Shown piece by piece: positions 10,549-13,770 of a stretch of DNA of 23,169 nucleotides; the first letter of the stretch is position 1, and each line of letters starts with the position of its first letter. The stretch is from a virus: IMG/VR virus record IMGVR_UViG_3300027771_000106, positions 1 to 23,169 of that record; one strand, given 5' to 3'. The notes under the pieces are model-generated. The model saw only the letters and a program-made list of their open reading frames with translations, was not told the origin of the DNA and ran no database searches. The translations under genes were made by a program, and so were the position numbers.

Positions 10549-11114
10549 GAAAGTGCCTCGACTAAATCAACCTCATAAGTAAAGAACATTCCCGCACCTA
10601 ATTTATAACTCTGCACATCATTGGCTAGGCGTACAGTAAATGGCACATCATCATAGGTGACTGTCTCCGTTCCTACGGCCTCAACTAATGGAGGCGTGAT
10701 TAACATTGCACCATTGCCACTTCTGTCAGCCGTGAGCATATAAACCTTGTCATGGCCTGCGAACTTAATAACGTCACCCGCCTTTAAAACCCCTGTAAGG
10801 CCCGATACTGTAACCGAGGCTAACCCTTTAGCCGTTGCAGAAGTGCTCACTGTGCCGCTTGCTGTGCCGCTTGTGCTGCTTATTGCTGTGGGTACAATCG
10901 TGAAGACTCCATGACTACCTTGTTGGGATACAACAAAGGCAAATACAGGGTTAAATTGAGCGCGTGTCATAGGCGCATAAGACGCAGTGAAGGCCCACTT
11001 TTGACCGCCAATTTTTCTGCTTTGCATACGCCCATTGACTGCACTGCTCATTAGGCTAGGGCTGTCAGATTGTAGATTGATGCCGTTAAAGGCTGGGCTG
11101 GTTGGATAACTCAT
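10545..11114 (-). CDS. Distal tail / minor tail protein
   Basis: A 189-residue protein without a signal peptide or membrane segment. The N-terminal region (P-A-F-N-G-I-N-L-Q-S, then a basic patch, then W-x-F-T-A-S-Y-A-P-M-T-R) and the C-terminal part (F-F-T-Y-E-V-D-L-V-E-A) look like distal tail (Dit-like) or lambda M-like proteins. The middle, about residues 75-115, is a Ser/Thr/Ala/Gly-rich insertion. It follows directly after the tape measure gene with an ATGA overlap, the usual place for the first distal tail protein. It probably forms the ring at the end of the tail tube. Assignment rests mainly on position and general character. Confidence 0.65.
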   Translation of the reverse strand: MSYPTSPAFNGINLQSDSPSLMSSAVNGRMQSRKIGGQKWAFTASYAPMTRAQFNPVFAFVVSQQGSHGVFTIVPTAISSTSGTASGTVSTSATAKGLASVTVSGLTGVLKAGDVIKFAGHDKVYMLTADRSGNGAMLITPPLVEAVGTETVTYDDVPFTVRLANDVQSYKLGAGMFFTYEVDLVEALS

Positions 11115-12823
11115 GCTAGGGCTGGCCTCCCGTTTTCATTGAGAGATTGATTGATTAGGCTCATCAGTGTTCCACGCCTCTTGGTGAGCAATTCATCGAA
11201 GCCCTCCGTATCATTTGCAGAGATATTGATGGTGTAATTGCCACCGCCTAATTGATTATTAGGAACCACATTAGCTGCTTGATTTGGCACAATAAGCTCT
11301 GGCCCGCGCTCTCCTACGATGTACGGGCTACCCGCACTCATTGGGCCGCCCTTCTCACGGAACTGGGTTGCGCGTATGCTTTGAACTTGCATCATGCCGT
11401 TAGCTAAAGCCAAAGCACCAAGGCCGATATTGATGGGAAAAGGCGCAGAAGCCAAGGCTGTAGAAACGGCTTTGTAGGTGTTAATCAGCGCATCTTTAAG
11501 AGCAAATGACTTATTCATATCAAAGGCTGCTTTGTAATGTCCACTTAATGCCCCTAGAGTTTCTCTTCCTTCCTCTTTTAGATCGCCGAAATCTTTTTGT
11601 TGAGCTAATTTCTGCATGGCTGATTGTTTGGATAAATATTGATGAGTTAGCTCATTCATCTTTCTTTGATGCTCAAAAGCCTTTCCCTCTGCCATAGATT
11701 GATAACCATCTTGCAAGTCAATTAATTGGCTATTGGTCATTGCTGTAAGGTCAACCAAGCTCATGTCTTTGCTGGTTATATCAACAGCGTCAATAGGTGC
11801 TCTTGCTCCTTTTGCCTCTTCCGCAAGGAATTGCAATTGCATCCTCATCTCTGCAATATTATTAATTCCGTTATCAAAAGATTCGCCAGTGAAAGGAATC
11901 GCATTAGCTTTAAAATCTGTGTCCCCAAGGAACCTATGAAAATTTTCTAAAGCTGCGCCACTAAAATTAACAAAATCAAATATGCCTTGAGTCATTCCTC
12001 TAAAGGCCGTTAAAACTGTTTCAGAAGCACCTAATACTGAGTCAGCAATGCTTATAGCTAACTTAGCTGGGCCGCCTGCGCCACTTACCTTTAACTCAAT
12101 CCATCCCATCAGGCCCTTAGTGACTGACTCTATCGCAGGAGCTAGTTGCGCTACGGCTCGGTTAAATACATTCGTGACATAATTACTTAATACAGTGATC
12201 GAATCATTGGCCTTTTCGACTCCTTTGACTAATCCTCTTTCAAATCTAAAACCTAGACGCTCTGCCTCTTGCTCCATCTCAATAATGGCTGCGCTGCCAC
12301 CCTTTAGCGTGTTAACAAGTGCAACACCCTCAGAGTCAAATAGGCGCATAGCTAGACGCACTTTCTCGCCCTGCTGAGTCACACCCGCCATTGCATCTGC
12401 AATCGCTTTGAATTGTTGATCAGGAGCCAGCTTATTAAGAGCGTCAGCCGATAGTCCAAGCTCGATCAATGCGGCTTTAGCTTCGCCTGATCCTGCGGCT
12501 GCTTCTGAGATACGCCTAACCATGCGCTGTAGGCCCATGTCTAAGGTATTGGACGCAATGCCTGTCAGTTCTGCCGCGTGTCTTAGACCGCCTAACTCAG
12601 CCGTTCCTATGCCGATCTTGTCAGCCATTTTGCCTAGTGCATCAGTGGATTCAAGAGACTTTTTAATTAGGAATCCAAAGCCAGCCACACCCAAAGCAAT
12701 GAGCGCAGTCTGCATTGAAAAAGCGACTTTCTTTATGGCGTTTAGGCCCATAGTAACGGCCCGAAAAGACCGCTTAGTTTTATCAACAGCTTTAATGACG
12801 ATATTTAGATTTTCACTTGCCAT
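11111..12823 (-). CDS. Tail tape measure protein
   Basis: A 570-residue, mostly helical protein with a hydrophobic segment at about residues 33-53. Near the C-terminus is the motif G-G-P-M-S-A-G-S-P-Y-I-V-G-E-R-G-P-E-L-I-V-P (about residues 492-513, V-G-E-R-G-P-E being the core), common at the end of tape measure proteins. It sets tail length and is threaded through the tube. If about 1.5 angstrom per residue applies, as in other siphophages, the tail would be near 85 nm (inference). GGAG lies seven bases before the ATG. The start lies inside the end of the tail chaperone frameshift extension, an 11-base overlap. It is short for the family but shows no sign of truncation. Confidence 0.9.
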   Translation of the reverse strand: MASENLNIVIKAVDKTKRSFRAVTMGLNAIKKVAFSMQTALIALGVAGFGFLIKKSLESTDALGKMADKIGIGTAELGGLRHAAELTGIASNTLDMGLQRMVRRISEAAAGSGEAKAALIELGLSADALNKLAPDQQFKAIADAMAGVTQQGEKVRLAMRLFDSEGVALVNTLKGGSAAIIEMEQEAERLGFRFERGLVKGVEKANDSITVLSNYVTNVFNRAVAQLAPAIESVTKGLMGWIELKVSGAGGPAKLAISIADSVLGASETVLTAFRGMTQGIFDFVNFSGAALENFHRFLGDTDFKANAIPFTGESFDNGINNIAEMRMQLQFLAEEAKGARAPIDAVDITSKDMSLVDLTAMTNSQLIDLQDGYQSMAEGKAFEHQRKMNELTHQYLSKQSAMQKLAQQKDFGDLKEEGRETLGALSGHYKAAFDMNKSFALKDALINTYKAVSTALASAPFPINIGLGALALANGMMQVQSIRATQFREKGGPMSAGSPYIVGERGPELIVPNQAANVVPNNQLGGGNYTINISANDTEGFDELLTKRRGTLMSLINQSLNENGRPALA

Positions 12824-13291
12824 TCTTCATCTCCAAAAAAGCTGCCCAAAGTAGTATCTCATCGGTATCTAGGTTCATGATTTCCCCCAGCGTCTTGTGA
12901 AGGTGTTCCGCTAGTTGCATGGCGAAACGTAAATCATGATCCTCTTTTAGTTTTTTACTGCATCCTCCACAGTGGGCTGATCATCGTCACTCATTTCTGT
13001 GACTATTCGGCTTACAACTTCTGGATCAACAGTGAGCATCATTTCAGTCATGTTGGAGCGCGTGAATAACTTCACTCCGTTCTTATCCATAGCCTTTAGG
13101 ATCAAAGTCATAATCACCGCTTCTGCTGGTTTATTGTCCCCGTGTAGCCGAAGTACGGCCCCTTGATCTTTGAAGTTCATGCTGGACTTGAAATACACTT
13201 TAGTTCCCCACTCAGGAACATTAACGGATTTAAGATCACCCGACATTCGATCCGAAAAGTGAACTTTTGCTGCTTCTAAAATGGTACTCAT
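12813..13291 (-). CDS. Tail assembly chaperone, -1 frameshift product (G-T type)
   Basis: Translation begins as the 114-residue chaperone, shifts back one base at A AAA AAC (12956-12950), and continues for 45 residues to a TGA at 12815-12813. The full product is about 159 residues. The extension is fully open and bypasses the zero-frame TAA placed directly after the heptamer. It carries a helical sequence with D-E-I-L-L-W-A-A-F-L-E-M, similar in style to the end of other T domains. By analogy with lambda G and GT, both products would coat or recruit the tape measure protein and feed tail tube subunits to it. The extension is far shorter than lambda T. Frameshifting is read from sequence, not measured. 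Confidence 0.8.
12905..12928 (-). promoter_or_regulatory. Possible stem-loop downstream of the slippery site
   Basis: GTTTCGC (12928-12922) can pair with GCGGAAC (12911-12905) in a seven-pair stem with one G-U pair and a ten-base loop. It begins 21 bases after the heptamer. That is further than the usual five to nine bases, so it may be a stimulator, part of a larger fold, or chance. Confidence 0.3.
12947..13291 (-). CDS. Tail assembly chaperone, zero-frame product (G type)
   Basis: A 114-residue protein between the tail tube and tape measure genes, the standard place for the G-type chaperone. Sequence is mixed alpha/beta with an acidic C-terminus (E-M-S-D-D-D-Q-P-T-V-E-D-A-V-K-N). Ribosomes that do not slip stop at the TAA immediately after the slippery heptamer. 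The Shine-Dalgarno GGGGAA at 13302-13297 is five bases before the ATG and lies within a potential RNA hairpin (see the leader entry). It is expected to act in the cytoplasm during tail assembly and not to be part of the virion. Identification rests on position plus the frameshift signal more than on a residue motif. Confidence 0.8.
   Translation of the reverse strand: MSTILEAAKVHFSDRMSGDLKSVNVPEWGTKVYFKSSMNFKDQGAVLRLHGDNKPAEAVIMTLILKAMDKNGVKLFTRSNMTEMMLTVDPEVVSRIVTEMSDDDQPTVEDAVKN
12950..12956 (-). other. Programmed -1 frameshift slippery site, A AAA AAC
   Basis: On the minus strand the bases read GTA AAA AAC TAA in the zero frame, so the heptamer A AAA AAC is in the correct X-XXY-YYZ register and is followed at once by the stop. 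An internal Shine-Dalgarno-like GGAGG at 12968-12964 is seven bases upstream of the heptamer. Such an element stimulates -1 slippage in E. coli dnaX, where it sits about ten bases upstream. Confidence 0.8.
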
Positions 13292-13296
13292 AATAA

Positions 13297-13376
13297 TTCC
13301 CCAATTAGTCCCCCGACTAAATTAACGGCAAGCGCATCGGGGAAAACGCCTTTCAGTCATAAGACCTAGCCGTTAA
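13297..13376 (-). promoter_or_regulatory. Structured leader of the tail chaperone gene, possible ribosome-site sequestration
   Basis: This roughly 90-base spacer is the longest non-coding stretch between genes. It holds three inverted repeats on the minus strand. TTAACGGC (13376-13369) pairs with GCCGTTAA (13329-13322). TTCCCCGAT (13344-13336) pairs over nine positions, one of them G-U, with ATTGGGGAA (13305-13297), which contains the Shine-Dalgarno GGGGAA. TTAGTC-GGGG-GACTAA (13320-13305) is a perfect six-pair hairpin nested inside the second. No T-run follows, so it does not look like a terminator. A role in limiting chaperone translation is inference. Confidence 0.45.
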
Positions 13377-13380
13377 ACTT

Positions 13381-13770
13381 TTATGACACAGTGGATAGAG
13401 TTAACGCGCCAACACCAGTAAAGCTGAAAGACGTTTCAACGATTCCATCAGTGGCGGCACTAATACCAACCTCAGTCACTATTACTGTTCCTGTATAAAA
13501 CTTATCAGCACTTGCCGCTCCCTCAACATAAAATGAAATGGTCAAGGAACTGCCCACAGTGATAGCCGTTTGAGCCGCATCTGCTTCATCCCAATACGCT
13601 TCCGCAGAACCAGAGAAAGAGGTCTGTCCAGCCGTATAGGTTTTAGCCGCATCAGCTAAAGTGGTGGTTTCTATCGTTCCTGACGTTTGACTAATACTGT
13701 ACGAACGAAGCTCTCCTAAAGTGTCGGAGCCGATTTTAATAATGCCTTCTGAACTGTTGTGCGTAGCCAT
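13381..13770 (-). CDS. Major tail (tube) protein
   Basis: A 129-residue beta-rich protein with the usual features of siphophage tube proteins: an early I-K-I-G-S-D-T-L-G-E-L-R-S-Y-S-I, then T-T-T-L-A-D-A-A-K-T-Y-x-A-G, then F-S-G-S-A-E-A-Y-W-D, and a C-terminal strand F-S-F-T-G-V-G. It would form hexameric rings stacked into the tail tube. A perfect AAGGAGG (13784-13778) precedes the ATG by seven bases, the strongest ribosome site I found, in keeping with a highly made structural protein. The start overlaps the stop of the 43-residue gene upstream (TAATG). It lies between tail terminator and chaperone genes, as is standard. Confidence 0.85.
   Translation of the reverse strand: MATHNSSEGIIKIGSDTLGELRSYSISQTSGTIETTTLADAAKTYTAGQTSFSGSAEAYWDEADAAQTAITVGSSLTISFYVEGAASADKFYTGTVIVTEVGISAATDGIVETSFSFTGVGALTLSTVS

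What the first reader, a model, noticed from the sequence alone, without database searches (positions are those of the whole stretch)
12813..13291. Programmed -1 frameshift making a 159-residue tail chaperone with an unusually short T extension
Seen in sequence: A AAA AAC in correct register, a zero-frame stop directly after it, and a 45-codon open -1 frame running to 11 bases inside the tape measure gene. Known: lambda-type phages make G and GT chaperones this way. The T part here is 45 residues against well over 100 in lambda, so it may show the minimal region needed to contact the tape measure or tube protein.
Basis: partly seen in the sequence, partly recalled or inferred. Interest (0 to 1): 0.6.

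Follow-up and report, generated by a model that had tools for sequence, protein, structure and literature searches.

The report
Tail-chaperone frameshift with conserved RNA stimulator
This virus of bacteria makes two versions of a tail-building helper protein by having some ribosomes slip back one base, a well-known phage trick; what is new here is a folded RNA just past the slip site that has been conserved across relatives, while the 'unusually short' extra piece turns out to be ordinary.

Summary
On the minus strand, G (13291..12947, 114 aa) ends A AAA AAC TAA, and a 45-codon -1 frame (T, 12950..12813) ends 11 bases inside the tape-measure gene. Comparison makes a -1 programmed frameshift very likely: 113 of 120 informative loci keep the in-register A AAA AAC beside the G stop and an open T frame, and T is under purifying selection only in the -1 frame. 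G's predicted fold matches the HK97 tail assembly chaperone; T matches the first ~40 residues of lambda T.

'Unusually short' is not supported: T is 45-61 residues across the family, P2's E' is about 56, and one PHROG already spans the whole G-T protein.

It is supported by compensatory changes and is far stabler than synonymous recodings (mean z -3.6 and -3.3; controls 0.1 to -1.25). It probably compensates for A AAA AAC, an inefficient slip site in E. coli. One clade (L113-L118) lost the heptamer but kept T and the structure; how it makes T is unexplained. A new member of a known kind.

The parts
12947..13291 (-). G: zero-frame tail assembly chaperone, 114 aa
   Evidence: ORF; phrog_344 and phrog_16513 tail assembly chaperone; AlphaFold model (pLDDT 80.6) matches HK97 tail assembly chaperone 2ob9, Foldseek E 4.6e-4, prob 1.00, TM 0.64
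12950..12956 (-). A AAA AAC slippery heptamer in the zero frame, abutting the TAA stop (12949-12947)
   Evidence: present in 113 of 120 informative loci
12813..12950 (-). T: -1 frame extension, 45 aa plus TGA stop
   Evidence: purifying selection in this frame only; T alone hits phrog_337 tail protein E 1.5e-4 and phrog_16513; lambda T residues 3-43 align E 1.7e-6; three-helix AlphaFold model, pLDDT 85
12871..12943 (-). Downstream RNA three-way junction beginning 6 nt after the heptamer: P1 12943-12941/12873-12871 and 12939-12931/12883-12875; P2 12928-12922/12911-12905; P3 12903-12898/12889-12884. Proposed frameshift stimulator.
   Evidence: MFE -24.8, z -4.1; covariation in 23 distinct sequences; stability beyond synonymous recodings, localised here
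12964..12968 (-). SD-like GGAGG 7 nt upstream of the heptamer, a possible second stimulator
   Evidence: sequence; SD-like motifs in 64 of 113 loci and 20 of 35 in the window's clade, so not universal
11111..12823 (-). Tape measure protein gene whose start overlaps the end of T by 11 bases
   Evidence: phrog_9483 tail length tape measure protein E 3.4e-65

Best explanation
Most ribosomes translating G terminate at the TAA right after A AAA AAC and make the 114-aa chaperone. A minority, paused by a folded RNA that starts 6 nt past the heptamer (a three-way junction in this clade), slip back one base at A AAA AAC, bypass the stop and add the 45-residue T domain, giving a 159-residue GT protein. 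By analogy with lambda, many G and few GT coat the tape measure protein, and the T domain recruits the tail tube protein so the tube polymerises around it. Shown here by comparison: slip site, frame, selection on T, RNA structure, G fold, T homology. Inferred: that slippage happens, its efficiency, that the structure stimulates it, and what G and T bind.
For: In-register A AAA AAC with abutting stop in 113/120 informative loci found by searching with G alone, so not selected for T. T under purifying selection only in the -1 frame. G fold is the HK97 chaperone. T core homologous to lambda, HK97 and P2 extensions. Gene order is major tail protein, G/T, tape measure. RNA structure at canonical spacing: 34 double-change cells vs 11.7 +/- 2.8 in shuffles, 91.9% of cells paired vs at most 50% when slid. 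Synonymous-recoding z is -3.58 (15 loci) and -3.25 (20 loci) right after the heptamer, between 0.1 and -1.25 in G and tape-measure stretches. No conserved start codon for a separate T (21 of 113 loci have none in the first 15 codons). A runs of only 6-7 bases in 112 of 113 loci argue against transcriptional slippage. HK97-type chaperones give 6-7% frameshifting experimentally (PMC3711429).
Against: No expression data. A AAA AAC is inefficient in E. coli (PMC4066793). Six relatives (L113-L118) lack the heptamer but keep T and the RNA structure, so something other than this heptamer can serve there. On the 23-sequence alignment the number of pairs with double changes (6) did not exceed shuffles (4.8 +/- 0.8); only the cell count, percentage paired and covariation score did, and the sequences are related. 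RNAalifold drops helix P3 on that alignment and gives only a weak consensus for the sister clade.
Confidence: 0.88

Rival explanations
1. Frameshifting occurs at the heptamer alone; the downstream RNA fold is incidental to coding constraint or has another role (such as mRNA stability or control of tape-measure translation).
For: Lambda and P2 show only weak or no structure by the same test (z -2.0 and +1.4 immediately downstream), so G-T frameshifting does not need a strong structure. The T peptide itself is strongly constrained.
Against: The fold is more stable than recodings that keep the same peptide and codon usage, and only directly after the heptamer. Compensatory changes keep pairs. Two clades keep a stable element at the same spacing with different topologies.
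Confidence: 0.15
2. RNA polymerase slippage on the A run, rather than ribosomal slippage, creates the T frame.
For: A-rich slip site; 64 of 113 loci have 7 A and one has 9.
Against: 48 of 113 loci, including this one, have only 6 A. The third base of the A-site codon is fixed as C, and the fixed register, abutting stop and RNA structure are not needed for transcriptional slippage.
Confidence: 0.04
3. T is made separately by reinitiation or an internal start rather than as a fusion.
For: The heptamer-less clade L113-L118 keeps T, with AATAG at the stop (a possible AUA restart).
Against: No start codon position is conserved in T; 21 of 113 loci have none in the first 15 codons, and only 18 have a start plus SD-like motif. 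The conserved L1, D4 and F9 lie upstream of many candidate starts.
Confidence: 0.04

Closest known systems
Phage lambda gpG/gpGT (G GGA AAG frameshift)
   Same: Position between major tail protein and tape measure genes, -1 shift near the end of G, T overlapping the tape-measure start; lambda T residues 3-43 align with the T family profile (E 1.7e-6)
   Different: Lambda T ORF is 144 aa against 45 here; different slip heptamer; weaker downstream structure by the same test
HK97 gp13 / gp13-14
   Same: G fold (2ob9, TM 0.64); the first ~34 residues of the extension align (E 1.1e-5)
   Different: Extension of about 96 residues (224 vs 128 aa); no significant sequence similarity of G to gp13
Phage P2 gpE / gpE+E' (T TTT TTG frameshift)
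   Same: Short -1 extension of about 56 residues ending just inside the tape-measure gene; weak T-core similarity
   Different: Slip site about 20 nt before the stop; no strong structure immediately downstream; myophage
IS911 -1 frameshift (A AAA AAG with three-way-junction stimulator, PMC5009743, PMC4066793)
   Same: Adenine heptamer followed by a three-way-junction RNA, with an upstream SD-like motif
   Different: Transposase gene, not phage; A AAA AAG (own knowledge) rather than A AAA AAC; the junction here is supported by covariation only, not by mutagenesis
Pelagibacter phages HTVC111P/112P/026P/202P and Phage DSL-LC06
   Same: Nearest sequenced phages by capsid (46-51% identity) and chaperone; HTVC202P, HTVC026P and DSL-LC06 keep A AAA AAC, an abutting stop and T of 56-61 aa, unannotated in those three records
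   Different: HTVC111P uses A AAA AAG, as the HTVC112P gene end also shows; structure strong in DSL-LC06 but not in HTVC202P or HTVC026P

Membership tests
G-T tail assembly chaperone frameshift (lambda type) | Gene located between major tail protein and tape measure protein | tested here: met
   Phage_tail_2 at 13381-13770, tape measure at 11111-12823
G-T tail assembly chaperone frameshift (lambda type) | In-register slippery heptamer near the 3' end of G with an open -1 frame | tested here: met
   conserved in 113/120 informative loci
G-T tail assembly chaperone frameshift (lambda type) | G homologous to or sharing the fold of a known chaperone | tested here: met
   phrog_344/16513; fold match to HK97 2ob9
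G-T tail assembly chaperone frameshift (lambda type) | -1 frame is protein-coding and homologous to T | tested here: met
   pN 0.11 vs pS 0.80; lambda T alignment
G-T tail assembly chaperone frameshift (lambda type) | Both G and GT produced at a defined ratio and required for tails | not testable with these tools
   needs expression experiments
Structure-stimulated -1 frameshift signal (IS911-like three-way junction) | Stable RNA structure a few nt (about 5-9) after the heptamer | tested here: met
   spacing 6 nt; z -3.6 vs synonymous recodings
Structure-stimulated -1 frameshift signal (IS911-like three-way junction) | Structure conserved by compensatory changes | tested here: met
   helices 1 and 2 have changes on both sides; helix 3 varies on one side only
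Structure-stimulated -1 frameshift signal (IS911-like three-way junction) | Disrupting the structure lowers frameshifting | not testable with these tools
   needs a reporter assay

The most novel reading that the evidence does not exclude
A widespread lineage of environmental phages tunes its chaperone ratio with a weak A AAA AAC slip site plus a conserved RNA stimulator that has changed topology (hairpin versus three-way junction) between clades, and one clade (L113-L118) keeps the stimulator and T with no recognisable heptamer (GCA CGG GAA TAG), making T by an unrecognised slip or restart.
Probability: 0.35. Interest if true: 0.55.

Novelty: new member of a known kind. Interest (0 to 1): 0.38.

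Why it matters
G-T frameshifting is textbook biology, but what sets the G:GT ratio in phages using poor slip sites is little studied. This family offers many natural variants: two stimulator topologies, a clade that lost the heptamer, and relatives with A AAA AAG. The 45-residue T, which coincides with the region shared with lambda, HK97 and P2, is a compact candidate for the minimal tube-contacting domain. The T frame is also missing from the annotation of several sequenced relatives.

Tried and rejected
T as an independently started gene: no conserved start. Transcriptional slippage: A run too short in 48 of 113 loci, including this one. Pfam and NCBIfam searches of T and the fusion gave nothing credible. 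PDB sequence search with G gave no credible hit, and with T only designed repeat proteins, rejected as chance. Fold search with the T model gave no significant match. The upstream SD-like GGAGG is present here but not universal, so it is listed as possible only. RNAalifold over the mixed sister clade gave a weak consensus because GCG/GCA/GGC variants shift the stem register, so named-structure counts and synonymous recodings were used instead. Rfam has no match to the downstream structure. Papers searched for chaperone frameshift stimulators gave only general reviews and surveys.

Full report
Observation. On the minus strand, G runs 13291..12947 and ends GTA AAA AAC TAA; the heptamer A AAA AAC is 12956..12950. 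The -1 frame from 12950 is open for 45 codons to a TGA at 12815-12813, 11 bases inside the tape-measure ORF that starts at 12823. Every number in the finding is right. AAAAAAC as a string is not enriched in the window (4 seen, 5.5 expected); the evidence lies in register, position and conservation.

Context. The gene order on the minus strand is major capsid, tail terminator, major tail protein, G/T, tape measure, distal tail protein and lambda-J-like protein. The window is a 23-kb virus record. Its capsid protein is closest (46-51% identity over nearly the full length) to Pelagibacter phages and Phage DSL-LC06.

Conservation of the frameshift. Searches with G alone gave loci that, together with the window and two isolate phages, were read for both frames. 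113 have the in-register A AAA AAC, 109 with the stop immediately after and 4 with it one codon later. All have an open T frame of 45-61 residues, apart from one contig (L023) that ends inside T. Six (L113-L118) lack the heptamer, L070 has an internal deletion that joins G to the last third of T (possibly an assembly artefact), and two are truncated. T evolves as protein in the -1 frame: pN 0.11 vs pS 0.80 in the window's clade and dN/dS 0.14 in the sister clade, while the other two frames carry stops and show no such signal.

Identity of the parts. G hits tail assembly chaperone PHROGs, and its AlphaFold model matches the HK97 chaperone 2ob9 (E 4.6e-4, prob 1.00, TM 0.64). T alone hits phrog_337 (tail protein, 1.5e-4), and the joined protein matches phrog_16513 from end to end (E 1.9e-13, 160 positions). 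The T family profile aligns with lambda T residues 3-43 (E 1.7e-6), with the start of the HK97 extension (1.1e-5) and weakly with P2 E' (3e-4); these are pairwise E-values. T is predicted as three helices (5-17, 21-25, 29-42; pLDDT 85).

Is T unusually short? Against lambda (144-residue T ORF) yes; in general no. P2 E' adds about 56 residues. In this family T is 45-46 residues in the window's clade, which lacks a basic tail (such as KKAMNKRSR) present in most sister-clade members with 51-58. For lambda, T is reported to bind the tube protein and G the tape measure (PMC5009743).

RNA structure (not in the finding). The 73 nt from 12943 to 12871 fold into a three-way junction starting 6 nt after the heptamer (-24.8 kcal/mol, z -4.1; L010 z -5.6, L011 z -6.8). 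Over 23 distinct sequences of the clade, 91.9% of cells pair (50% or less when slid), with 34 double-change cells against 11.7 +/- 2.8 in shuffles; 6 of 28 pairs have double changes, in helices 1 and 2. The number of such pairs does not exceed shuffles on that alignment (4.8 +/- 0.8), though it did on the smaller set of 8 distinct sequences (6 vs 1.8 +/- 1.0). In the sister clade (48 distinct sequences) a single long hairpin occupies the same place, with GC/CG/AU exchanges at its base. Because this RNA also codes for T, a control recoded each sequence synonymously with local codon usage: mean z -3.58 (15 loci) and -3.25 (20 loci) directly after the heptamer, and between 0.1 and -1.25 in G and tape-measure stretches (mean -3.17 in T vs -0.38 in G over 64 sequences). 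The same kind of test gives -2.0 for lambda and +1.4 for P2 just downstream of their slip sites. Rfam has no match to it.

Mechanism. A AAA AAC is among the inefficient slip sites in E. coli, because re-pairing from AAC to AAA is non-cognate, yet it is used by some insertion sequences (PMC4066793) and is the reported site in archaeal virus HCTV-2 (PMC5009743). A downstream structure at 6 nt would be expected to raise slippage; a three-way junction does so in IS911 (PMC5009743). I therefore propose a weak site plus a structured stimulator setting a low but defined GT fraction. The slippage itself and the effect of the structure are inferred, not shown.

An unexplained clade. L113-L118 end G with GCA CGG GAA TAG. 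They keep T (45 aa, IAKDHDLRF...) and a -30 to -33 kcal/mol fold in the same place. A -1 frame stop upstream limits the event to about 18 nt around the stop. Single-tRNA slippage of GAA onto GGA beside the UAG, or restart at AUA in AAUAG, are possibilities; neither is tested.

Verdict. The frameshift passes every comparative test that could be run, and is ordinary in kind and in T length; the conserved RNA element and the heptamer-less clade are the parts worth following.

Noticed in passing
window 13310-13376 (-), leader of G: An int-alpA RNA (Rfam RF02996) lies between the major tail protein gene and G: 34 bits here (gathering 35.8), above gathering in relatives L106, L097, L099 and L127 (38-42 bits). 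Its CCCC loop could pair with either of two downstream GGGG runs, the second next to G's start codon; CCCCGAT/ATCGGGG becomes CCCCGT/ACGGGG in relatives, suggesting control of G translation.
   Followed up: partly
L113:2501-2860 and L114-L118 equivalents: Clade with the A AAA AAC heptamer replaced by CACGGGAATAG but T frame and downstream structure kept.
   Followed up: partly
L070:1998-2405: Internal deletion joins G in frame to the C-terminal third of T, removing the slip site; natural deletion or assembly artefact.
   Followed up: no
L128:3824-3970 and L129:3880-4032 (Pelagibacter phages HTVC112P, HTVC111P): Opposite-strand hypothetical genes (gp41, gp45) are annotated over the unannotated T frame region; HTVC111P has A AAA AAG with a T frame of 60 residues and a short perfect hairpin just downstream.
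   Followed up: partly
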